Notes under the pieces: generated by a model
The model's database searches: none
What the model saw: the letters and a program-made list of their open reading frames with translations, nothing else
Told to the model about the DNA's origin: nothing
In this document: positions 7,329 through 17,909 of the stretch, one piece after another
Layout of the letters: each line of letters begins with the position of its first letter
Position numbering within the stretch: the first letter of the stretch is position 1
Program-made: the position numbers and the translations under genes
NCBI RefSeq assembly: GCF_001294205.1
Contig: NZ_LAQT01000009.1
Span: 124,001-188,000, forward strand
Source: Amantichitinum ursilacus
Lineage (GTDB): Bacteria > Pseudomonadota > Gammaproteobacteria > Burkholderiales > Chitinibacteraceae
Direction: 5' to 3'
DNA length: 64,000 nt

Positions 7329-7664
7329 TCAGCCGCCCACCGTCATGCTGCGGCAGGCGTCGGCGCACACGATGCAGGCGGCGGCGCATACCTTGCAGTG
7401 GTCAGCGTCGTGCTGGCCGCACACCGCGGCGCAAGCATCGCAAACCGACGCACACAATTCGCACGCTTCCACCGCAAACCCGCTATGACGCGCCAACAGG
7501 GCGGCGGCAAAGCGGCAGGCCTCGGCGCAATCGATATCGTGCCGGATGCATTTAGCCATTATCTTGATGTCCTCTTCATCCAGACACGCTTGTGCGCACT
7601 GATCGCACGCCTGGGCGCAGCCATAACACGCCAGTATGCAGGCGGCGTAACTGGTTTGAGCCAT
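7329..7664 (-). CDS. Four-helix-bundle cysteine-rich copper-storage protein (DUF326, Csp3-like)
   Basis: The chosen start is the ATG at 7662-7664, which has an AGGAGA ribosome site about five bases upstream; the reading frame stays open further 5' but lacks family features. The product is 111 residues with 19 cysteines, mostly in CxxxC/CxxC spacings (CILACYGCAQACDQCAQAC, CELCASVCDACAAVC, CKVCAAACIVCADAC). Cysteines lining a four-helix bundle in this way are characteristic of the DUF326/Csp family, which binds many Cu(I) ions. There is no signal peptide, so it should be cytosolic like Csp3 rather than the exported Csp1. Role inferred: copper buffering or storage. It is a single gene, convergent with the c-di-GMP enzyme gene. 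Confidence 0.85.
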   Translation of the reverse strand: MAQTSYAACILACYGCAQACDQCAQACLDEEDIKIMAKCIRHDIDCAEACRFAAALLARHSGFAVEACELCASVCDACAAVCGQHDADHCKVCAAACIVCADACRSMTVGG

Positions 7665-8084
7665 TGCAGTCTCCTGATTGCCGGAATCGTCGCCGCTATT
7701 CTCGGGTATGCGTTTTGACATCACCGTCACGCCCGCGCTGATAGCCACGTCAGTCATCCGCGCCGTTACCGCACGCCATGCGCTGGCGCGTGGGGGCATG
7801 CCGCTCACGCCCGCCGTAGTCCAACGCGTGCCCTAAGCGGCGCAATCCCGCATATAATACGGCCCCCGCAAAGCGGACCCGGTAGGGTGGGTGTGACCAT
7901 TCAATCACTACATCTAGTGTTCGGCTTTAACACGTCGCACTAGATATGCTATCTTTGCCCCCGTTGTTGGCGATCTGGAAATGCTGCATTGCAAGGCCGC
8001 TTATGGCTGGCGGCAGATGACGAGATGCCAAACCAACGCGGTAACAGCGGGTCGAACCGGGTCGGGCTTAACAGGAACTACACG
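7665..8084. other. Intergenic region carrying promoters of the copper-storage and nrd transcripts
   Basis: This 420-bp gene-free stretch lies between two divergent units. It holds the probable NrdR operator described separately and a GGTAGGGTGGGTGT motif near 7880. No convincing gene was seen on either strand. The ribosome site for the next gene (AGGAA near 8072-8076) lies at its right end. Confidence 0.4.
7905..7952. promoter_or_regulatory. Probable pair of NrdR boxes
   Basis: Box 1, TCACTACATCTAGTGT (7905-7920), contains the palindrome CACTA-CATC-TAGTG and matches 13 of 16 positions of the NrdR consensus ACACwATATaTwGTGT by eye. Box 2, GCACTAGATATGCTAT (7937-7952), matches about 11 of 16. 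The box starts are 32 bp apart, three helical turns, the typical tandem spacing for the ribonucleotide-reductase repressor NrdR. nrdB lies 0.8 kb downstream on the + strand, which supports the call. Confidence 0.6.
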
Positions 8085-8781: not shown

Positions 8782-9873
8782 ATGCTGAACTTTGACGACG
8801 ACATCGCCACCCCGCAACACAGCAGCGACGCCGCCCCCGCAGGCGTAAACACCAGCAACCGCGTGCGCGCCGCTGACAAACGCGTGATTAACGGCACGAC
8901 CGACGTCAACCAGCTGGTGCCGTTCAAACACAAATGGGCGTGGGAAAAATATCTGGCGCAATGTGCCAACCACTGGATGCCGCAAGAAGTAAACATGCAG
9001 CGCGACATCGAACTGTGGAAAAGCCCGAACGGCCTGACCGAAGACGAGCGTCGTCTGGTCAAACGCAACCTGGGCTTTTTTGTAACCGCCGATTCGCTGG
9101 CCGCCAACAACATCGTGCTGGGTACGTATCGCCAGATTACTTCGCCGGAATGCCGCCAGTTTCTGCTGCGCCAGGCGTTTGACGAAGCCATTCATACCCA
9201 CGCCTACCAATACATTGTGGAAAGCCTGGGCCTGGACGAAGGCGAAGTGTTCAACGCCTATCAAGAAGTGGCATCGATCCGCGATAAAGACGAATTCCTG
9301 ATTCCGTTTATCGACGTGCTGACCGACCCGAAATTCAAGAGCGGCACGCTGGAAACCGACCAGACCCTGCTGCGCTCGATTATCGTGTTTGCCTGCATCA
9401 TGGAAGGCCTGTTCTTCTACGTCGGCTTTGTGCAAATCCTGGCGCTGGGCCGCCAGAACAAAATGACCGGCGCAGCCGAGCAATATCAATACATCCTGCG
9501 CGACGAATCGATGCACTGCAATTTTGGTATTGATTTGATCAACACCATCAAACAAGAAAACCCGGAATTGTGGACTGAAACCTTCAAGGCCGAGATTACC
9601 GAACTGTTTAAAAAAGCAGTGGATCTGGAATACGCCTACGCCGAAGACACCATGCCGCGCGGCGTGCTGGGTTTGAATGCCAGCCAGTTCAAGGAATACC
9701 TGCGCTTTATTGCCAACCGCCGTATGCAACAGATTGGCCTCGACCAATTGTTCCCGGGCGTGACCAATCCGTTCCCGTGGATGAGCGAAATGATTGACTT
9801 GAAGAAAGAGAAGAATTTCTTTGAGACGCGCGTGACGGAATATCAAACGGGTGGGGCGCTGAGCTGGGATTGA
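8782..9873 (+). CDS. nrdB: Ribonucleoside-diphosphate reductase beta subunit (class Ia R2)
   Basis: This 363-residue radical-generating subunit is needed for making deoxyribonucleotides. Diiron ligands are visible as Asp104 (TADS) and Glu135 with His138 ([10 protein letters not shown]); the later helices contribute EGLFFYVGF and DESMHCNFG. Tyr142 occupies the tyrosyl-radical position, so this is the Tyr-containing type, not the class Ic Phe variant. The C-terminal tail ([10 protein letters not shown]) is the peptide that docks on NrdA. A good AGGA ribosome site precedes the ATG. NrdA is not adjacent on either side, which is unusual because nrdA normally precedes nrdB. Probable NrdR boxes upstream at 7905-7952 and a terminator at 9935-9962 frame the unit. 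Confidence 0.96.
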
Positions 9874-9934
9874 GGGTTGCCCGGTCGGGCGATCAAGTTA
9901 GTCGGTCAATCATGCTTAGCGGACGATTGAACGC

Positions 9935-9962
9935 AAAAGCCCCGAAGATTTTCGGGGCTTTT
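9935..9962 (+). terminator. Rho-independent terminator after nrdB
   Basis: The stem AGCCCCGAA / TTCGGGGCT encloses the short loop GATT, with A-runs before and T-runs after. It lies 62 bp past the nrdB stop and could work on both strands. Confidence 0.85.
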
Positions 9963-10124
9963 CATTTCTGTTGCCGCGTCGGCTCGAGTGGGGCGCGAAG
10001 CGCTTATTCGCACTTTTATTCGCCGCATCCCTTGAAACTGCGCTGAAAGCCACCGGGCGTAGTGCCAAACCTGTTTTATAAGCCAGCTACAGCGTTAGCG
10101 CGTGGATGCAATCCAGCGCCACGG

Positions 10125-10946
10125 TCACCGAGCCTCGCCCACCCCCATCGTTCCGTGCCGCAGGCCTGTCTGGACCAACCCCAGCTCATCCAGCGTCAGC
10201 GTAAATGGCAAGTTGCTCACACGCACGGCGCCGTTGAAAGGGCGGTCTACGGCCAGCACAAAGAAGAACGCCAGGCCCAGGGTTGCGGCCCAGCCGGCAA
10301 TCAAGAAGGTATTGAAGTGCGTGCCGGGCAGGGTATAGAGCACCGCAAAGCTCAGCGCGCTGACCGCCAGCATCACCACCCATAGTGTGACGGGCAAGTG
10401 GGCTTCCAGCGAGAGCAAGCGCTGCTGGCGACATTTGGCCAGTTCGTTCAGGCGCATCAATATTTCGGATAGCAAAGCGGTCTGGCGCGGGGTGGTGGGG
10501 GTAAGGCGGGTGGTCTGGTCAAACAGCACGCCAAACAAGCGCTCGGTGGACGGGTCTGCTCTGGCCTCGTGTTCCATCACCGGCCATTCCGCAGTGGCCA
10601 CGCGCAGCAGGTAGTCATGCAGCGTGCTTGCGGCCAGATCCGCAGGGTTGGCATCAAACGCGGCCAGATCGCGCGCCAGTTCTCCGGCGCAGGCGGCTTC
10701 GGCAGCCACGATGCGCTTGGTGCTGTCGTAGGCGTCCAGCACGTTTACCGCAGCAAAAGCCAATAACAGTGAATTGATGGTGCTGATAATCGACACCATG
10801 GTCAGCGTCATGGCGCGTTGTTCCGCATCGGGGTGCGACAAACGCAGGCGGCGCACCAGGGCAAAGCCCAGCAGCGCGGCCAGCACGGTGGCGCAGACCA
10901 CCAGCAGGCCAGCCAGCACGCCCGACAAGTTGTAAAGAAAGTCCAT
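10125..10946 (-). CDS. Membrane protein, DUF4239-like (bestrophin-like topology)
   Basis: This 273-residue protein has predicted membrane segments near residues 7-29, 47-68, 178-200 and 205-225. The long soluble region between the pairs (about 70-175) contains AEAACAGELARDLAAF. The pattern of an early helix pair, a region with conserved Y/D residues (VLDAYDSTKRIVAAEA), a hydrophilic middle and a late helix pair matches the DUF4239 family. Its start follows the stop of the upstream gene by 3 bp, with the ribosome site (GGAG) inside that gene, so the two are coupled. It is the last gene of the leftward arm of the DUF2589 locus. Function is unknown; an ion-channel-like role would be guesswork. 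Confidence 0.75.
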   Translation of the reverse strand: MDFLYNLSGVLAGLLVVCATVLAALLGFALVRRLRLSHPDAEQRAMTLTMVSIISTINSLLLAFAAVNVLDAYDSTKRIVAAEAACAGELARDLAAFDANPADLAASTLHDYLLRVATAEWPVMEHEARADPSTERLFGVLFDQTTRLTPTTPRQTALLSEILMRLNELAKCRQQRLLSLEAHLPVTLWVVMLAVSALSFAVLYTLPGTHFNTFLIAGWAATLGLAFFFVLAVDRPFNGAVRVSNLPFTLTLDELGLVQTGLRHGTMGVGEAR

Positions 10947-10949
10947 GAT

Positions 10950-11942
10950 TTATTGCTCCGTGCTCGCGGTGGCGTCAGAGGCTGCGGCGTCCGGGGTGCT
11001 TAGCAATGACTGGATCAGCGCGGTCATTTGTTCGCGGATCAGCGCGGGCGGCGTGCCTGCGTCCAGCAGGGTCTGCAAGGCCAGCATGCGGGCGGCCAGA
11101 TCGGCCTGGGTTTGTACGCGTTCGGCGGCGCCCTGCGCACGCTGGGTCCGCAGGCCGGCTTGCAGTTGGGCCGCGCCGTCGCCGCGCACCAGGGTTTCCA
11201 GGGTATCCACCAGTCGTTGCAGCAGGCGCTCCACCGCCGTCGCAGAAAAGCCGCCCAGCATGGCCAGTGCCGGTTTGCCAAAGTTGGCCATGCTGCCGCT
11301 TTCAAACAGCCCGGCCGGTAGCATTTCCACAATAATCAATCCGGCAATCACGCCCAGGATAAGCCGTGCGCCATAAGACGCGTCGTATTTGGGGTCGTAG
11401 CTGCAATCGGCGATATAGCGGTGCGCCTGGAACAACGTGGCAAACGCGGCACCCAGCCCGGCACAGCTCAGCAGGTAGGCCATGTTTACAAACAGCACCC
11501 AGCCCGATGAGCCCAGCAGGCCGGCATCCATGTTGGCTTCGGTTACTTGCGGAAATAACCCGATCAGCACCACACCCAGCAAAAACGCCAGCGCATTCAG
11601 CGTTAACCGGCGTATCAGTGGCACCGGGCCCAACCAGGACCACGGGCTGGCGCGCAGCTTTTCCTGGTCCAGCACGGTAATGCCCTGGGGCGTGGCGGGC
11701 GCCACCGCGCGGGCCAGCTTTTGATGCAAGTGCACCAGCTCGGCATTTTGTTGCGCGGTAAGAACGGGCTGGTCCGTCGTCAGCGCCACCAGCCGCGCCA
11801 CGCCCTCCGGGGCCACGGGCATGCCGTGCTGTAGCAGGTATCGCACCATGGCTTCACATTCCAGTTCAACCTGCTGGGGAAGCGGTCTGCGACTGGCGGC
11901 CACGCGTTGGGCCTGGGCGTTGGCGATAGCGCTGAATAACAT
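10950..11942 (-). CDS. Unknown inner-membrane protein with C-terminal coiled-coil region
   Basis: I chose the ATG at 11940-11942 (MLFSAIANAQ) because a GAGG ribosome site lies nine bases upstream; GTG at 11960 and ATG at 11951 are alternatives. The 330-residue product has a cytoplasmic N-terminal part, then hydrophobic segments near residues 116-137, 150-172 and 205-225. A helical C-terminus rich in Gln/Arg/Ala (AERVQTQADLAARMLALQTL) is probably coiled coil. I do not recognise the family. It lies 33 bp after the upstream gene and is tightly coupled to the DUF4239-like gene downstream, suggesting that the two membrane proteins work together. Confidence 0.7.
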   Translation of the reverse strand: MLFSAIANAQAQRVAASRRPLPQQVELECEAMVRYLLQHGMPVAPEGVARLVALTTDQPVLTAQQNAELVHLHQKLARAVAPATPQGITVLDQEKLRASPWSWLGPVPLIRRLTLNALAFLLGVVLIGLFPQVTEANMDAGLLGSSGWVLFVNMAYLLSCAGLGAAFATLFQAHRYIADCSYDPKYDASYGARLILGVIAGLIIVEMLPAGLFESGSMANFGKPALAMLGGFSATAVERLLQRLVDTLETLVRGDGAAQLQAGLRTQRAQGAAERVQTQADLAARMLALQTLLDAGTPPALIREQMTALIQSLLSTPDAAASDATASTEQ

Positions 11943-11975
11943 GGCGGGCATCCTCGGCACGCTGTGTCGTCGCTA

Positions 11976-12488
11976 TTACGGGGCGGTTAGCTGGACATCG
12001 GCAATCGGCGTGCCGGTCTGGGTCATAAATCGCAGCACACCGGGCCCGCTGGCGGCGGGGATGAGGTCGAATGCGCCCTGCGCCAGCGCTGCGCATGGCT
12101 TGCCGCCGTTGCTGGAGAGCGACCCGTAGTGGCTGGCCGTCACGGTCTTGCCGTCTTTGCCCTGGATAGGGCGCGGCGTGGCAGCTTTAAGCGCATCCAG
12201 CCGGCAATCGCTGCCCGCCGTGATGTTCACCCACGGCAATTTGCCGCTGGCATTGTAGGTCAGCCAGTATTGGGTGCCGTTGTAGAGCAGCTGGCCCTGA
12301 TAAACCGGGCCAGTTTCAGCCGCATGGCTGGTGGTGGCGGCCAGGGCCAGCAGGGCAGCGATCAGCGTGCCCAGGAGCAGCCATAGCCTGAAGCCAGGCT
12401 GTGGGCGGCGTGTTGGCGCGCGGCCAAACAGCTGACGGGCGCGGCTGGCTTCGGCGTGGTCCAGCAAAAACAGATAGCGGTTTTTCAT
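11976..12488 (-). CDS. Unknown protein with an internal signal-anchor segment
   Basis: This 170-residue protein has an unusual N-terminus: about 33 hydrophilic, Arg-rich residues (MKNRYLFLLDHAEASRAR), then one hydrophobic segment (FRLWLLLGTLIAALLALAATT, about 33-53) ending in SHAAE. It could be a signal anchor or a cleaved long signal peptide. The exported part (about 115 residues) contains two cysteines (SDCRLDAL, KPCAALAQ), possibly a disulphide, and ends in a beta-rich stretch. No family is recognised. It lies within the leftward arm of the DUF2589 locus, 74 bp after the Stv-like gene. Confidence 0.65.
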   Translation of the reverse strand: MKNRYLFLLDHAEASRARQLFGRAPTRRPQPGFRLWLLLGTLIAALLALAATTSHAAETGPVYQGQLLYNGTQYWLTYNASGKLPWVNITAGSDCRLDALKAATPRPIQGKDGKTVTASHYGSLSSNGGKPCAALAQGAFDLIPAASGPGVLRFMTQTGTPIADVQLTAP

Positions 12489-12561
12489 GATGTAACCTCA
12501 AGAAGAGCCCTTGCAACGCGGGCGCTGCAAGGGCGTGGGTCAGGCCCAACGCGGTCCAGGC

Positions 12562-13071
12562 TTAGTCGGCGGAAATATGAGCGCGGCTGCCGCTGATCTG
12601 CGCCGCGCACGCGCTCCAGTACAGCTTCAGCTTGCCGCCCTTGGCCACTTGCGCCTTGATGGCGGCCTGGATTGCAGCATTGGTTTTAAGCAGCTCGCTC
12701 AGCGAGATTTGCTGATCCGTCAGCACCACATTGGTACGGCCACCGATGGTCTTTTTGCCCCAGTCGGCCAGATCGCCGAGCGGGTACAAAGTCAGGTCTG
12801 GCGCCAGGCTACCGCCCGGTAACGCGGGCGACGGTTCCCATTCGGTAGCCGGGCCCCATTTTTTGGTGCCTTGTTGCCAATGGCTGAGGTACAGCTTGTC
12901 GATGGCGCGTTGCCCGATCAGCGCCTCGGCCACGCCGGTGGTTAGCGTGTAGCCCACGGGCTGCAGGATGTAGAGATCAACACCGGCGGGCAGGGTGAAG
13001 TTTTTGGCGCCGCCTTCATAAGAACCATGGCCCAGGGCCACGATGTCCTGATTGCTTACTTGAATAGCCAT
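12562..13071 (-). CDS. Putative adhesin Stv-like domain protein
   Basis: This 169-residue protein has no signal peptide. It starts MAIQVSNQDIVALGHGSYEGG and continues with LPAGVDLYILQPVGYTLT and, near the end, KLKLYWSACAAQ. A GHG(S/G) near the N-terminus, an LPAG.....P.G block and a terminal WSAC motif resemble what I recall of the Stv-like 'putative adhesin' domain found in many proteobacterial accessory loci. This is recognition from memory without alignment. GHG and WSAC could together form an active or metal site (inference). It is co-directional with its neighbours in the DUF2589 locus; its ATG has a weak ribosome site (GAGG, about 10 bases upstream). Confidence 0.55.
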   Translation of the reverse strand: MAIQVSNQDIVALGHGSYEGGAKNFTLPAGVDLYILQPVGYTLTTGVAEALIGQRAIDKLYLSHWQQGTKKWGPATEWEPSPALPGGSLAPDLTLYPLGDLADWGKKTIGGRTNVVLTDQQISLSELLKTNAAIQAAIKAQVAKGGKLKLYWSACAAQISGSRAHISAD

Positions 13072-13141
13072 TTCTGTTTACCTCTTGAATGTATGGGACT
13101 GGATGGGATGGGCAGGGCGTTGTGGCTCCACAACCGCCGCA

Positions 13142-13537
13142 TTACCCTCCGGCTTTGCCCAGCGGCCGCCCGGCAATGGTTTTAAGCAGATGGCCGCCGA
13201 TCAATACGTCGGTTTTGAGCGGCTGGCTGCCGTAAAGCCGTATTTCCACGGGCAGGCTGGGCGGGTTGCGCCACCACCGGGTGCGGCGCATTTGCAGGCC
13301 GGTTTTGCCGTTGCGCTGATACAGCTCGCAGTCAAACCGCATCTTCATTTCACTGATGTCGTAGGCGGTGGCGCTGATATGTGACGCCGCGCCAGCCGCT
13401 TGCAAAATGCGACGGGCGCGTTCTACAGCGCGAGGGGCGGGGGCATCGTGAGACTCGGATCGCGGCGTGGCGCGAGCGGCCAGCATGCTGTCGTACAGCG
13501 CGGTCAGCAGGTCTTGCAGGGTGATTACGTTGCGCAT
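13142..13537 (-). CDS. Short DUF2589-like protein
   Basis: This 131-residue protein appears related to the DUF2589 protein encoded at 16287. The N-terminus MRNVITLQDLLTALYDSMLAA parallels MATPLTLKDLLAALSGAVIGA. A later beta segment, ISEMKMRFDCELYQ, parallels IREVEIEFDVELGE. The C-terminal half is basic (MRRTRWWRNPP). It lies between the Stv-like gene and a small gene 11 bp upstream, suggesting an operon. Function is unknown; being a reduced paralogue on the opposite arm, it may assemble with the full-length DUF2589 proteins (inference). Confidence 0.6.
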   Translation of the reverse strand: MRNVITLQDLLTALYDSMLAARATPRSESHDAPAPRAVERARRILQAAGAASHISATAYDISEMKMRFDCELYQRNGKTGLQMRRTRWWRNPPSLPVEIRLYGSQPLKTDVLIGGHLLKTIAGRPLGKAGG

Positions 13538-13548
13538 GCTGTCGCCCC

Positions 13549-13806
13549 TTAATCCACAAGCCAGACGGGCCGACGGCTAAAGCCGACGTGATAAACCAAC
13601 CACTGCAACACCACCTGGTGCTCGTTCACCTGCAGCACGGTAAAGCTCTTTTCCACGGCCAGAATGCTGCCGCGTGGCGAATCGGTGAGGCAGCGGTTCA
13701 GCAAGGTTTCTGCCTCAGCCACTTCGTCACGGGTACGGATACGGGCAGGGTTGTCGCTGCCCACCACAATGCGCTTGACGAATCGCACTTCGGTTAGATC
13801 AAGCAT
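13549..13806 (-). CDS. Small unknown protein of the DUF2589 locus
   Basis: The start is taken as the ATG at 13804-13806 because an AGGGA ribosome site sits eight bases upstream; an earlier in-frame start at 13845 lacks one. The 85-residue product (MLDLTEVRFVKRIVVGSDNP...VVLQWLVYHVGFSRRPVWLVD) is soluble and likely alpha/beta. No family is recognised. It lies 11 bp before the short DUF2589-like gene and is probably co-transcribed with it. Confidence 0.55.
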   Translation of the reverse strand: MLDLTEVRFVKRIVVGSDNPARIRTRDEVAEAETLLNRCLTDSPRGSILAVEKSFTVLQVNEHQVVLQWLVYHVGFSRRPVWLVD

Positions 13807-13998
13807 GACGTGCGTCCCTTTGGGTTCGCGGTTAAAGAGCCGCAAATCAGTGATTGCGGATGAGCGCCGTTGCGGGCTGCCAGGGTTGGGCCACGGCTTG
13901 CGGGTGGTGGCCTTTGCAGCATGGCCTGCGGATTGCGGCGCAGAAATCAGTGTTTTTTGCGCGAGTGCCAGGTGTTTTACCGATGGCCCTGGCGTGGG

Positions 13999-14535
13999 TT
14001 ACCGGTCAGCAAAGCTGTCGGTGCGGCGCAGCCAGCCCTTCAGAAATTGGGCGAGCGCCGGGCGACGCGCGGCCAGGTCCTGGTAGTAGGCTCTGCGGCC
14101 CGCTTTGTAGCGCCGGTACAAATCAACCGGCTCCGCCGCCAGTAAGGCTTTCAGCGTGGCGGCGCCAAACAGGCCGTCGGCATTCAGCATTGCGCCCGTG
14201 GGCTTTTCATTCAGCAGCTTTTGCAGCAGGCGCACGGCGTTGCCACCGGCGTTGACGTAGAAGTCGAACAGGATTTCTGCCAGCGGTTGGTCGGGTATTT
14301 CATCGCCATGCAGCACGTCCCAATAAGCCGCTTTGTAAATCTTGAAGGCCTGCTCGTCGGTCAGTGCTTTCAGGTTGGCCAGATTGGGCGGAATGCCCAG
14401 CAGCGGCTGGGCGTGTATCTGAAAAGTGGCGAGGGTAATGCCCTTGTTGGTGGCGCCGCCGGGGTCGGCGGGGTTGTTAACAAAGCCACCTTCAAATTCC
14501 AGCAAGTGTTTAAAAAACAGATCAAGTTGTGCCAT
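13999..14535 (-). CDS. Lysozyme-like muramidase (glycoside hydrolase family 108 type)
   Basis: The start ATG is at 14533-14535 with a GAGG ribosome site; an earlier in-frame start at 14574 is less likely. The 178-residue product starts MAQLDLFFKHLLEFEGGFVN and continues DPGGATNKGIT, the EGG...PGGxTNxGIT block that carries the catalytic Glu of GH108 (phage N-acetylmuramidase-like). The C-terminal half resembles the peptidoglycan-binding PG_binding_3 domain (NADGLFGAATLKALLA). There is no signal peptide, as in phage endolysins, so it needs a holin, another exporter or assembly into a particle. Its place inside a small-protein locus with membrane proteins recalls a lysis or cell-wall-crossing module, but no phage structural genes are nearby. 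Confidence 0.85.
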   Translation of the reverse strand: MAQLDLFFKHLLEFEGGFVNNPADPGGATNKGITLATFQIHAQPLLGIPPNLANLKALTDEQAFKIYKAAYWDVLHGDEIPDQPLAEILFDFYVNAGGNAVRLLQKLLNEKPTGAMLNADGLFGAATLKALLAAEPVDLYRRYKAGRRAYYQDLAARRPALAQFLKGWLRRTDSFADR

Positions 14536-14729
14536 GACATGCCTCGTGGGGTGAGTGCATCGCGCGGGTCGCAATGCGCTCAGCCCAATCTAGGCAGGGG
14601 CTTGCCGGTGGCGCTCTCAGCCTTTTGGCTAGCTGCTCTCAGCTAATCTCCGGGTGTGCTGAATGCGCCATGAAAGCGGTCGTTCTGACGCCGCAGGCTG
14701 CGGCAATGCACAAGGCGCTGGTCAGGTCG

Positions 14730-15380
14730 CTACAGCTCGATCATTCCCTCGCGGATGGCGTAACGGATCAGGTCGGTGGTGTTGCGCAGGCCCAGGCGGG
14801 CCAGAATCTGCTCGCGGTGGGTGGCTACGGTTTTTACGCTCAGCCCCAAGCCGTAGGCAATTTGCTTGGTGCCTTGGCCCATGGCGTACAAGTGCAGGAT
14901 TTCTCGCTGGCGCGGGGTCAGGCAGGCGGATGTGGCGCCGCCGCTGTGGCCCGAGAACAAGGCATTGGCGATACTGCTTAAATACAGCCGACCGTCTCTG
15001 GCTGCGGTAATGGCCGCCAGAAATTCGTTGGAAGAATCGCGTTGCATGACCAGGCCACTGACACCGGCGCGCACTGCGTGGTTGACCCAGTCATGCGATT
15101 CCTGCCCGCCCACCAGCACCGTGCGTGGGGAAGGGTGCATGTCGCGCAGACGGGTCATCAGCTCTATGCCCGTCATGCCTGGCAACTGTGCGCTGCATAC
15201 CACCACATCGGGCTGGATTTGCTCCACCAGCCGCAGGCAAGCCAGACCGTCTCCGGTTTGGGCCGCCAATGAGATATCGGCCAGCTCGTTAATCAGGCGC
15301 GACAAGCCTTCTCGCACCAGCTCTCGATGATCAACCAGAATCAACGGGTGTTCCAATATTCTTTTTGAAATAGCAAGCAT
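14730..15380 (-). CDS. LuxR/NarL-type regulator with a degenerate receiver
   Basis: I start at the ATG at 15378-15380 (MLAISKRILEHPLILVDHREL); the frame is open upstream to about 15473. The 216-residue product has an N-terminal receiver-like domain and a C-terminal LuxR HTH (LTPRQREILHLYAMGQGTKQIAYGLGLSVKTVATHREQILARLGLRN). The phospho-acceptor position is Ser (VVVCSAQLPGMTG) instead of Asp, and the conserved Lys is replaced (LVMQRD). It is therefore unlikely to be controlled by phosphorylation and may respond to a ligand or to protein contact. It is the first of three clustered LuxR-type genes and may control the flanking DUF2589 genes. Confidence 0.85.
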   Translation of the reverse strand: MLAISKRILEHPLILVDHRELVREGLSRLINELADISLAAQTGDGLACLRLVEQIQPDVVVCSAQLPGMTGIELMTRLRDMHPSPRTVLVGGQESHDWVNHAVRAGVSGLVMQRDSSNEFLAAITAARDGRLYLSSIANALFSGHSGGATSACLTPRQREILHLYAMGQGTKQIAYGLGLSVKTVATHREQILARLGLRNTTDLIRYAIREGMIEL

Positions 15381-15457
15381 GGTGAAATCATCGGTAATGT
15401 AGACGCCGCTTATATTGGGATAGCCCGGATCGCCACAGCAATACCCCTGTTGTCGTA

Positions 15458-15685
15458 TCAGGCGAGGGGCCACTGCGCGACCTTTGCGGCCAATTGGCCC
15501 GCATGATTGACCCCCAGTTTGCGCATCAGGTTTTCACGGTGTTTGCGGGCAGTGCCCACAGAAATACCCAATGCGCGCGCAATGGTTTTGGTGTGGTCGC
15601 CGCGCAGGATATGCAGAGCCACTTGTCGCTCACGCGGCGTTAATGCGGCGAGGGCCGGGTAAAAACAGAGGGCTGCGGCGCCCAC
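15458..15685 (-). CDS. Stand-alone LuxR-type HTH protein overlapping its upstream paralogue
   Basis: This 75-residue frame starts at a GTG (15683-15685) and contains a full LuxR HTH (LTPRERQVALHILRGDHTKTIARALGISVGTARKHRENLMRKLGVNHAGQL). Its 5' 46 bp overlap the 3' end of another LuxR HTH gene in a different frame. Either the two are translationally coupled small regulators, or they are halves of one tandem-HTH protein split by a frameshift near 15640-15685. No sensor domain is visible. The start codon is uncertain. Confidence 0.55.
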   Translation of the reverse strand: MGAAALCFYPALAALTPRERQVALHILRGDHTKTIARALGISVGTARKHRENLMRKLGVNHAGQLAAKVAQWPLA

Positions 15686-15933
15686 ACCTGGCGCAGGCCG
15701 GCCAGGCTGTTTACCCCCAGTTTGCGGTATACGCTGGCGCGCTGTTTGCGCAGCGTTTCAATGCTGGACGCGCTGCCCTGGGCAATCTGCCGCAGGCTGA
15801 GGCCTTCGTACAAGGCGGCCGCCACCTGGCGTTCGCGGGGGCTCAGGCCCGCCAGATTGGCGGCGTGGTCGGGCCCCGGCGTGTCACTTGCTGAGGGCGG
15901 ATGGGGAGAGTGCTTGATGGTGCGTGCAGGCAT
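15640..15933 (-). CDS. Small LuxR-type HTH regulator
   Basis: The frame opens at a TTG (16005), but I prefer the ATG at 15931-15933, giving 97 residues. After a short polar leader comes a LuxR HTH domain (LAGLSPRERQVAAALYEGLSLRQIAQGSASSIETLRKQRASVYRKLGVNSLAGL), then a tail overlapping the next gene. There is no receiver or ligand domain, so it resembles the free-standing GerE-type HTH proteins. It is probably a tandem duplicate of the next HTH. It is divergent from the DUF2589 genes at 16287 and may regulate the shared promoter region. Confidence 0.6.
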   Translation of the reverse strand: MPARTIKHSPHPPSASDTPGPDHAANLAGLSPRERQVAAALYEGLSLRQIAQGSASSIETLRKQRASVYRKLGVNSLAGLRQVWAPQPSVFTRPSPH

Positions 15934-16286
15934 CAGGCGGGCCAGCTCCGGGCGGAGGCAGGCGCGGGGGCAGGCGGGCCGCAACGGTAAGCCACGGCAA
16001 GGCAAGGCATAGTGGGCATGTTAAATAACGGCAATCAAACAAGCGCCGCCGGCACTGGCCAGACACAGTGCATTGCGGGCTTTGGGCCCCGTCCGTCTTA
16101 GGCCTGTTTTTGCCATAAAGCCAGGTCAGACCGCCCTCTGGCACGGCCTGACCAAGCAGACGGGCGAATCGGCATTTCACCTGGCTGCACCATCAAAAAC
16201 ACTGATTTAAATGCCATTGGGGGGCAGCCATGCTGCAAAGGCCATCAGCAACCTGGTGATGGTCCATAACCTTCAGAGGCATCCAC
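15934..16286. other. Divergent promoter region of the DUF2589 locus
   Basis: This 353-bp stretch separates the LuxR-type genes (leftward) from the DUF2589 genes (rightward). I see no convincing gene. The stretch just before 16287 is AT-richer and contains CACTGATTTAAATGCCA, with the ribosome site AGAGG near 16275. It is the natural place for binding by the adjacent regulators. Confidence 0.4.
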
Positions 16287-16823
16287 ATGGCAACTCCCCT
16301 CACCCTTAAAGATCTGCTGGCCGCATTGTCGGGCGCGGTGATTGGTGCGCAAGACCAGATCGAACAACATCAGCTGGCCAACCTGAGCGGCTATTTTGAC
16401 GAAGACAACCGTCCGCGCAGCGTGCAGGTGCGGCTGCCTTCCATGACGCCTGGGGCTGACGAGGGGGAAGAAGATTTTTACCGTGCGCCACTGCTGGCGC
16501 TGGTGCCCGCCAACCCCTTGCAGATTCGTGAAGTGGAAATTGAATTTGACGTGGAGCTGGGAGAACTGGGCAACGAGCCGCAGACCGGCAACGCTGCCGC
16601 ACCAACCAGCGCCGGCACGGGCGACACCGCGTGGAACGACGGCACCCCGCGCAAGACGGTGCAAATCGACGCGCAGCCCGGCAAAAAGCAATCGGTCGGC
16701 AAAGTACATCTGAAGGTGGTGGTGCATAGCACAGAAATATCGGCCGGCATGGCCAAGCTGACCAACCAGCTGGCGCAAACCCAGGGCGTGGTCAAAGCCG
16801 CCGCCCCCCGGCCCGTTGCATAA
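16287..16823 (+). CDS. DUF2589 family protein
   Basis: This 178-residue protein starts MATPLTLKDLLAALSGAVIGAQDQ, with an AGAGG ribosome site before the ATG. The N-terminal amphipathic helix, the beta segment REVEIEFDVELGELG and the sequence VGKVHLKVVVHSTEISAGMAKLTNQLAQ fit the DUF2589 layout, as in its neighbour. There is no signal peptide. It is the first gene of a three-gene rightward operon, 33 bp before the second DUF2589 gene. Function is unknown for the family. In many genomes DUF2589 genes come in small paralogous sets, as here, which suggests a multimeric assembly (inference). Confidence 0.75.
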   Translation: MATPLTLKDLLAALSGAVIGAQDQIEQHQLANLSGYFDEDNRPRSVQVRLPSMTPGADEGEEDFYRAPLLALVPANPLQIREVEIEFDVELGELGNEPQTGNAAAPTSAGTGDTAWNDGTPRKTVQIDAQPGKKQSVGKVHLKVVVHSTEISAGMAKLTNQLAQTQGVVKAAAPRPVA

Positions 16824-16856
16824 CCCTCAATCCCTTTAAAAAGCAGGAGTAACAAA

Positions 16857-17486
16857 ATGGCTGATATCGTCAATATGTCTGCGCAGTTCAAAGGTCTGCC
16901 TATGGCCGACCTGATCGGCGCCCCGCTTACCGCCGCGTGCGATGCCCAGGTCAAACTGGCGCGTGCGACGTCTGACTTCATCCAGTTGATCGGCTTTGCC
17001 CCGGACCCCGCCGCCGCAGCGGGCACCCCCGGCACACCCATCACCCGTACCGCAAGCTTCAGGTTCAAGCGTCCGGTAGACCGCCCCGCCACGGCGCAGC
17101 CCGGCGATTTTTACGAAGAAGAAGTGGAAATGGAGGTGCCGCTGCTGGCGCTGGTTAAAGTGCCCGCGCTGAGCATTACCACCGTGGATGTCAATTTTGA
17201 GATGGAGGTGAAGTCTTCGTTTGCCGAGCACACCTCCGAGGATTCCACGATGTCCGCCTCGCTGGACGCCAGCGTGAACTGGGGGGTGTTCTCAGCCAAG
17301 GTGCATGTGCAAGGGTCGGTTTCCTCGCACAAAGACAACACGCGGACCTCCGACAACTCGGCCAAGTACACCGTGGCCGTGCACGCCGAAGACAAGGGCA
17401 TGCCGGAAGGCTTGTCGCGCGTGCTGGATATCCTGCAAAGCAGCGTGGCACCGCGCAAGGTGGCTGCGCCGGTGCAAGTGCAGTGA
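16857..17486 (+). CDS. DUF2589 family protein (full-length)
   Basis: This 209-residue protein has the complete DUF2589 pattern: an N-terminal helix (LPMADLIGAPLTAACDAQVKLARATSDFIQLIGF), a proline-rich loop, then VEMEVPLLALVKVPALSITTVDVNFEMEVKSS. An NWGVFSAKVHVQGSVSSHKDNTRTSDNSAKYTV-type beta sheet follows, with a C-terminal helix (MPEGLSRVLDILQSSVAP). The long stretch of alternating hydrophobic residues suggests a beta-sandwich able to pack into a larger array (inference). It has an AGGAG ribosome site and lies 21 bp before the third gene. No enzymatic motif is visible. Confidence 0.85.
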   Translation: MADIVNMSAQFKGLPMADLIGAPLTAACDAQVKLARATSDFIQLIGFAPDPAAAAGTPGTPITRTASFRFKRPVDRPATAQPGDFYEEEVEMEVPLLALVKVPALSITTVDVNFEMEVKSSFAEHTSEDSTMSASLDASVNWGVFSAKVHVQGSVSSHKDNTRTSDNSAKYTVAVHAEDKGMPEGLSRVLDILQSSVAPRKVAAPVQVQ

Positions 17487-17507
17487 TGAGCTTGAGGAGA
17501 TAACGCC

Positions 17508-17909
17508 ATGTTTGATCCTGCAAGCATCATCGGCAATTTGCCGTTTCATGACGCATTGCCCAGCGGCCGCCAGATCAAGGATGAAAGCAATGGCGCCATT
17601 TACCTGTCGCTGGATAACGGCTTGCGCCTGATCCCCAACCTGAATGCATGGCATGCGCTGTTTATCAACGACGCCGCGCAGCAACATGCGCCCGTCGTGG
17701 GTGACGTGCACAAAGGGCGGCCTTTGGGCCACGATGCGGCGCTGATCAAGGGTGAGGGCGAAGGCAAAGTGTATTTGCTGGATGACGGCACGCGGCGCTG
17801 GATTGTATCGCCTGAGGTCTTTAACCGGTTTCAGTTTGACTGGGCCAAAATCAGAACCGTGGCCAATCACGAGCTGAATGCAATGCCGGAAGGCAATGAT
17901 ATTGAGTGA
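17508..17909 (+). CDS. Unknown protein with two VYLxDDGxRRWI-like repeats
   Basis: This 133-residue protein starts MFDPASIIGNLPFHDAL. It contains two related units: NGAIYLSLDNGLRLIPNLNAWHALF and GKVYLLDDGTRRWIVSPEVFNRFQFDW. Units of this VYLLDDGxRRWI kind occur as repeats in some surface or envelope proteins, where they form small beta hairpins (from memory, not aligned). There is no signal peptide. It is the last gene of the rightward arm of the DUF2589 locus and is followed by a strong terminator at 17945, so the operon is 16287-17909. Confidence 0.65.
   Translation: MFDPASIIGNLPFHDALPSGRQIKDESNGAIYLSLDNGLRLIPNLNAWHALFINDAAQQHAPVVGDVHKGRPLGHDAALIKGEGEGKVYLLDDGTRRWIVSPEVFNRFQFDWAKIRTVANHELNAMPEGNDIE

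What the first reader, a model, noticed from the sequence alone, without database searches (positions are those of the whole stretch)
10125..17909. Candidate undescribed system: DUF2589 proteins with lysozyme, Stv-like protein and LuxR regulators
A compact two-arm locus contains a short DUF2589-like protein, two DUF2589 proteins, a VYLxDDG-repeat protein, a signal-less GH108 lysozyme, an Stv-like protein, three unknown membrane or exported proteins and three LuxR-type regulators. Almost none has an assigned role, gene spacing is tight, and the regulators sit between the arms. I infer a coordinated envelope or particle-like assembly; the lysozyme could open the wall for it.
Basis: partly seen in the sequence, partly recalled or inferred. 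Interest (0 to 1): 0.65.

Follow-up and report, generated by a model that had tools for sequence, protein, structure and literature searches.

The report
Paired DUF2589 proteins with cell-wall-cutting enzymes
A small group of uncharacterised bacterial genes, built around two related DUF2589 proteins and a borrowed virus-type enzyme that cuts the cell wall, recurs in unrelated bacteria with different kinds of wall-cutting enzyme and also sits beside the lysis genes of uncultivated viruses, so it is probably an undescribed machine for opening the cell envelope on command.

Summary
The genes are real and mostly as described. The 13 genes are not one unit. The recurring core is a DUF2589 pair (K 16287-16823, L 16857-17486), a small conserved partner F (13549-13806), and a signal-less phage-type peptidoglycan hydrolase (here GH108, related to the typhoid-toxin secretion muramidase TtsA). 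LuxR regulators and membrane proteins A and B recur less often; Stv, C and M look accessory. Fifteen of 22 bacterial or plasmid DUF2589 loci have a peptidoglycan hydrolase nearby, from about eight non-homologous families. In 15 DUF2589 genomes, 6 of 21 GH108/GH24/GH19 genes lie within 3 kb of DUF2589 (expected about 0.05). The lysozyme start overlaps K in two genomes. The pair also occurs in about 50 uncultivated phage contigs; in one phage group 29 of 30 contigs carry it within six genes of the endolysin. I think it is a regulated, phage-lysis-related envelope-opening or protein-release module that works like a Type 10 secretion system. It is not filed as one: no holin was found and nothing identifies a cargo. 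DUF2589's biochemical role is unshown (low-confidence AlphaFold models, no fold match). The prophage-remnant reading is unlikely.

The parts
16287..16823 (+). K: short DUF2589 protein, 178 aa; core
   Evidence: PF11655 E 5e-27; 77% identical K in UBA1310; K partners in phages
16857..17486 (+). L: long DUF2589 protein, 209 aa; helix, beta sandwich with extra hairpin, helix; core
   Evidence: PF11655 E 2e-43; 80% identical in UBA1310; AF2 pLDDT 60
13549..13806 (-). F: 85-aa conserved partner, no known family; core of one subtype
   Evidence: 39-82% identical homologues beside K/L in UBA1310, L020, L022, L023, L024, three plasmids, UViG locus L030 and one 194-kb viral contig; independent F search in plasmids hits the same three plasmids as L
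13142..13537 (-). E: 131-aa protein, remote DUF2589-like; homologue in UBA1310, positional counterparts elsewhere
   Evidence: 54% in L019; weak alignment with other positional counterparts
13999..14535 (-). G: GH108 muramidase + PG_binding_3, signal-less, EGG...DPGGATNKGIT motif intact; core (interchangeable enzyme)
   Evidence: PDB relatives 2nr7, TtsA 6v40, Sen1395 6v3z; the only GH108 found in 15 DUF2589 genomes
14730..15473 (-). H: LuxR/NarL-type regulator with receiver domain; the usual phospho-acceptor Asp looks replaced (VVVCSAQLPGM)
   Evidence: Pfam; 50% homologue in UBA1310 beside GH108; Asp loss read from sequence
15458..15685 (-). I: small LuxR-type HTH protein
   Evidence: 59% homologue in UBA1310; 43% in Smac51 directly before K
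15640..16005 (-). J: LuxR-type HTH protein (start uncertain)
   Evidence: 39-43% matches in UBA1310
10950..11960 (-). B: 3-TM membrane protein, rare, no known family; recurring accessory
   Evidence: 58% homologue beside A, LuxR, L, K and GH24 in Burkholderia stagnalis; only the own genome plus one marginal hit in 200 genomes of the order
10125..10946 (-). A: Bestrophin-like (PF14023) membrane protein, 4 TM; recurring accessory
   Evidence: 52% homologue next to B in B. stagnalis
12562..13071 (-). D: Stv-domain protein; invariant GHG and [SA]AC-type motif, candidate His/Cys pair; accessory
   Evidence: 54% in UBA1310 at the same position; motif alignment
11976..12488 (-). C: protein with one TM segment near the N-terminus; positional counterpart in UBA1310 only
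   Evidence: TM; BLASTP to the UBA1310 counterpart not significant
17508..17909 (+). M: YLxDDG/EccB-like repeat protein; no counterpart found, accessory
12507..12534 (-). terminator-like hairpin (12-bp stem) between D and C
   Evidence: consensus match only

Best explanation
The locus carries a phage-lysis-related envelope-opening module. Shown by sequence: a DUF2589 pair (K, L), with F in one subtype, is repeatedly encoded next to a phage-type peptidoglycan hydrolase of interchangeable family, often near LuxR-type regulators. Inferred mechanism: a LuxR-type regulator switches the locus on. The muramidase is made in the cytoplasm without a secretion signal. The DUF2589 proteins, helped by F and E and in this lineage by membrane proteins A and B, assemble at the membrane and let the enzyme, and possibly a passenger protein, reach the peptidoglycan. 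The wall is then opened locally or the cell lyses, releasing material. It works like a Type 10 secretion system or a phage lysis cassette, with DUF2589 proteins where holins normally act. The holin-like role is the least certain step.
For: Linkage: 15 of 22 loci with a nearby peptidoglycan hydrolase, of 8 unrelated kinds. In 15 DUF2589 genomes 6 of 21 GH108/GH24/GH19 genes lie within 3 kb of DUF2589; expected 0.04-0.06, Poisson P about 1e-10 to 1e-11. K and GH24 overlap by 8 nt (L104) and 17 nt (B. stagnalis). The twelve signal-less lysins tested have no N-terminal hydrophobic segment. K-L pairs occur in about 50 viral contigs with RecE/RecT, primase, helicase, RNR and endolysin genes; in one phage group 29 of 30 have the endolysin within six genes. 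LuxR-type genes are close in window, UBA1310, Smac51 plasmid, B. stagnalis, L104 and L023. A-B-LuxR-L-K-lysozyme recurs in B. stagnalis with a different lysozyme and DUF2589 subtype. G is related to TtsA (PMC6996933).
Against: No recognisable holin, spanin or proven cargo. K, E and F have no TM segment and L only a marginal one. AlphaFold models are weak and match no solved fold. Seven of 22 loci show no peptidoglycan hydrolase. A second phage group (nrdA/nrdB neighbourhood) has DUF2589 pairs away from lysins. In phages the pair lies between tail-region and lysis genes, so a virion role is equally possible there. The two Vibrio plasmid enzymes are MltF-like with an N-terminal membrane anchor, so they need no holin.
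Confidence: 0.42

Rival explanations
1. K, L, F and E form a multi-subunit assembly (toxin-like complex or virion-derived particle) that is itself the cargo, and the lysozyme serves only to release it.
For: Three or four related small proteins encoded together suggest a hetero-oligomer; K and L distances correlate (Pearson 0.65 over 19 genomes, not corrected for relatedness); in phages the pair lies between tail-region genes and the endolysin.
Against: No match to tail, capsid, injection-system or toxin folds was found, though the models are low-confidence; no assembly evidence.
Confidence: 0.25
2. A programmed suicide or altruistic-lysis device (for example against phage infection), with LuxR proteins sensing the trigger and Stv as an effector enzyme.
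For: Sporadic distribution, an integrase next to the L104 module, a lytic enzyme, and Stv with conserved GHG...[SA]AC.
Against: No PADLOC match; no sensor or nuclease; Stv mostly absent from other modules; no evidence of defence-island context gathered.
Confidence: 0.14
3. DUF2589 proteins act on peptidoglycan hydrolases in the cytoplasm, as chaperone, inhibitor or localiser, rather than as a membrane passage.
For: K-lysozyme gene overlaps; K, E and F have no TM segment.
Against: One binder for at least eight unrelated folds is unlikely; pairs exist without lysins.
Confidence: 0.12
4. Decayed prophage remnant or chance neighbourhood.
For: Lysozyme and DUF2589 pairs both occur in phages; in L030 the module abuts a prophage with a P2-type double-jelly-roll coat and GPA-type replication gene.
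Against: No PHROG matches besides the lysozyme and M among the ten proteins scanned, no tRNA in window 1-30000, flanking nrdB and CheB/CheR-like genes, open frames with 50-82% conservation in UBA1310, linkage far above chance.
Confidence: 0.05

Closest known systems
Type 10 secretion systems (Salmonella TtsA/typhoid toxin, Serratia ChiWXYZ, Yersinia entomophaga lysis cassette)
   Same: Signal-less phage-type peptidoglycan hydrolase under dedicated transcriptional control, derived from phage lysis genes (PMC13284979, PMC10847048, PMC9527704); G is a sequence relative of TtsA
   Different: No holin or spanin recognised; DUF2589 pair and F present instead; cargo unknown; the hydrolase family varies from locus to locus
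Canonical phage lysis cassette (holin, endolysin, spanins)
   Same: DUF2589 pair sits within six genes of the endolysin in one phage group
   Different: That group also has its own small TM proteins that could be holins; K and L lack clear TM helices
Pfam DUF2589 (PF11655)
   Same: K and L are members above the cut-off
   Different: The family has no described function; the only paper found mentions up-regulated AF0414-AF0417 in Archaeoglobus (PMC3949148)

Membership tests
DUF2589 (PF11655) | profile match above curated cut-off over the full domain | tested here: met
   K 95.7 and L 149 bits against cut-off 23; E not detected
Type 10 secretion system | phage-type peptidoglycan hydrolase without Sec signal | tested here: met
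   G: GH108, no N-terminal hydrophobic segment
Type 10 secretion system | holin or holin-like membrane protein in the cassette | tested here: inconclusive
   No holin family match in Pfam, PHROGs or NCBIfam; A and B are membrane proteins of other kinds; a new holin cannot be excluded
Type 10 secretion system | spanin-like outer membrane component | tested here: inconclusive
   None recognised; C has one TM segment but no family
Type 10 secretion system | a cargo protein released in a lysin-dependent way | not testable with these tools
   Needs an experiment; neighbours such as a barnase-like exported RNase in L104 are only candidates
Prophage remnant | integrase, terminase, portal, capsid or tail genes, or attachment sites nearby | tested here: not met
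   The ten main proteins of the locus show only the lysozyme and M as PHROG matches; flanks read as nrdB and CheB/CheR; the rest of the 64 kb was not scanned
GH108 muramidase (TtsA type) | GH108 catalytic domain with EGG motif plus PG_binding_3 domain | tested here: met
   PDB relatives incl. TtsA 6v40
Known anti-phage defence systems | match to a PADLOC component | tested here: not met
   no match for ten proteins

The most novel reading that the evidence does not exclude
DUF2589 proteins are a new class of lysin-delivery or membrane-permeabilising proteins, unrelated to known holins, shared by uncultivated phages and bacteria. The bacterial loci are a new kind of secretion or lysis system that pairs them with whatever peptidoglycan hydrolase is to hand.
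Probability: 0.3. Interest if true: 0.85.

Novelty: new variant of a known kind. Interest (0 to 1): 0.6.

Why it matters
It ties a domain of unknown function to peptidoglycan hydrolases by linkage that holds across unrelated enzyme families, which makes a function testable. If DUF2589 proteins carry lysins across the membrane, they would add a non-holin route for endolysin delivery and a new set of regulated release systems, with homologues in phages not yet cultivated.

Tried and rejected
AlphaFold of L and K: pLDDT 60 and 62.5. Foldseek and VIA found no usable PDB match; one BFVD hit (A0A516MP19, 36% identity) is probably a family member without annotation. Sequence searches of the PDB with L, K, F and D: nothing usable. 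Idea that the L hairpin is a pore-forming insertion: its strands alternate hydrophobic and polar residues, but the ordinary strands do too, so it is not evidence. C in UBA1310 as a homologue: BLASTP not significant; positional only. E across loci: significant only in UBA1310. The genome-contig scan with a three-sequence alignment was too narrow (1 locus). E. coli has no such module. The LuxR of L104 resembles E. coli yhjB, so it may be a resident gene.
Full report
What is there. Between an nrdB-like gene and a CheB/CheR-like gene the window holds, on the minus strand, G-F-E-D and C-B-A, then the regulators H, I and J, and on the plus strand K-L-M. Pfam identifies K and L as DUF2589, D as Stv, G as GH108 with PG_binding_3, and A as PF14023. 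B, C, E and F have no family. Gene gaps are short, but a 12-bp hairpin with a T-rich tail between D and C suggests that C-B-A may be a separate unit.

Distribution. The own genome has only this DUF2589 pair. None of the 42 other genomes of its family that were examined has one; 3 of 100 relatives, 9 of 398 genomes of the phylum, 3 of 369 of the class and 4 of 399 of the order do, own or repeated genomes included. DUF2589 is nearly always found as a pair of one L-type and one K-type gene. Stv is as rare (4 of 299), so its presence beside DUF2589 in two genomes is notable, but it is absent from the other DUF2589 loci by tblastn.

Closest relative. Rhodocyclaceae bacterium UBA1310 (L019) carries small LuxR genes, then H, G, K, L, F, E, D and a C-like gene in one direction. 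L is 80% identical, F 82%, K 77%, G 72%, E and D 54%, H 50%. In the window K-L lies on the opposite side of the regulators. C is only a positional counterpart. This is conservation of a gene set, not a decaying remnant.

Core. F was found beside DUF2589 in UBA1310, L020, L022, L023, L024, the Smac51 plasmid, two Vibrio plasmids, the UViG locus L030 and a 194-kb viral contig. An independent F search of 72,556 plasmids returned exactly the three plasmids found with L.

Peptidoglycan hydrolases. In 22 bacterial or plasmid DUF2589 loci (window, L019-L028, L030, L087-L091, L102-L104, L106, L107), 15 have one close by: GH108 (window, L019, L030), GH24 (L023, L104, L106), GH19 (L020, L026, L103), Amidase_3 (L024), PF11860 muramidase (L090), Pesticin (L027), MltF-like SBP_bac_3+SLT (L089, L091; the L089 assignment rests on the family counts and annotation), and an M15-like endolysin read by eye without a Pfam match (L028). 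None was seen in L021, L022 (partly masked), L025, L087, L088 (4.1-kb contig), L102 and L107. Order can be striking: K-L-F-E-GH24 in L023; L-K-GH24 with K and GH24 overlapping by 8 nt in L104 and by 17 nt in B. stagnalis. The non-MltF enzymes have no N-terminal hydrophobic stretch (L028 not tested).

Null model. Three families were searched in all 15 genomes with DUF2589 (59.5 Mb). GH108: one hit, in this locus. GH19: five hits, three in DUF2589 loci. GH24: fifteen hits, two in DUF2589 loci. Six of 21 within 3 kb against 0.04-0.06 expected gives P about 1e-10 to 1e-11. Caveat: the families were chosen after seeing some loci, but too few families were tried for this to explain the excess.

Regulators and membrane proteins. 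B. stagnalis YJ-2 (L106) has B (58%) and A (52%) side by side, a LuxR-type gene, then L, K and GH24, with a different DUF2589 subtype and a different lysozyme. B was otherwise found only as one marginal hit in 200 genomes of the order and in two Paracoccus plasmids; in the one inspected it precedes a lipoprotein-like gene and an Amidase_2/GH19 enzyme. LuxR-type genes flank the module in window, UBA1310, Smac51, B. stagnalis, L104 and, fused to an M20 peptidase, L023. In L104 the gene may be a resident yhjB-like gene.

Phages. Fifty-three IMG/VR contigs encode L-type relatives and none of the INPHARED phages matches the window protein. Eleven L clusters at 90% identity remain after dereplication, so the count overstates independence. 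Forty-five of 50 have K within six genes. Group V1 has RecE/RecT, primase and helicase genes, and 29 of 30 contigs carry an endolysin-like PG_binding protein within six genes of L. Group V2 carries the pair next to nrdA/nrdB and no lysin. A tree needs three changes of the virus label, though its well-supported branches do not rule out fewer. Direction of transfer is not settled.

Mechanism. Shown: gene content, linkage, overlaps, signal-less enzymes. Inferred: LuxR-type control; DUF2589 acting with the enzyme at the envelope; release of cell contents or passengers. G is related to TtsA, a muramidase that lets typhoid toxin pass peptidoglycan (PMC6996933), and Type 10 systems derive from phage lysis genes (PMC13284979). 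Candidate passengers exist at single loci: a barnase-like exported protein in L104, a Tle1-like phospholipase in L024 and an M35 peptidase in L027. These were not tested for enrichment.

Known or new. Only one paper in the library mentions DUF2589, as up-regulated genes in Archaeoglobus. No Pfam, PHROG, NCBIfam or PADLOC model gives the pair a function. I therefore rate the module as an undescribed variant of lysin-based release systems. It is not placed inside T10SS because the holin and cargo criteria are open.

Noticed in passing
L104:7880-8350 (-): Exported barnase/binase-like protein (phmmer to PDB E 4e-8) directly after GH24 in the L-K-GH24 operon: candidate passenger or toxin.
   Followed up: partly
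L113:7121-9979 (-): Stv domain is the N-terminus of a VgrG-type spike protein (Phage_GPD + Gp5_trimer_C), next to a ClpV-like gene, hinting that Stv is an effector-type enzyme rather than an adhesin.
   Followed up: partly
window 12562-13071, L019:11387-11875, L112:8375-8863: Invariant GHG and [SA]AC motifs in Stv resemble the His/Cys layout of clan CD cysteine peptidases; not tested by structure.
   Followed up: partly
L030:1845-6570 and 8794-10977: GH108-K-L-F beside a prophage with a P2-type double-jelly-roll coat protein and a GPA-type replication protein.
   Followed up: partly
L110:7962-12576: Paracoccus plasmid: B-like protein, lipoprotein-like gene and an Amidase_2 + GH19 enzyme in one overlapping operon, without DUF2589.
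   Followed up: partly
L023:11249-12703: M20-family peptidase with a C-terminal LuxR-type HTH, upstream of K and divergent: unusual fusion.
   Followed up: no
window 14730-15473; L019:7538-8197: Receiver domains of both H regulators seem to lack the usual phospho-acceptor aspartate.
   Followed up: no
L061-L077: Second phage group has the DUF2589 pair next to nrdA/nrdB and a glycosyltransferase, with no lysin; the window also has nrdB 6 kb away, probably by coincidence.
   Followed up: no
window 7329-7808 (-): Cys-rich protein that looks like a four-helix copper-storage (Csp-like) protein.
   Followed up: no
L107:4938-6738: DUF2589 pair, possibly frame-disrupted, on a Streptomyces plasmid: the family reaches Gram-positive bacteria.
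   Followed up: no
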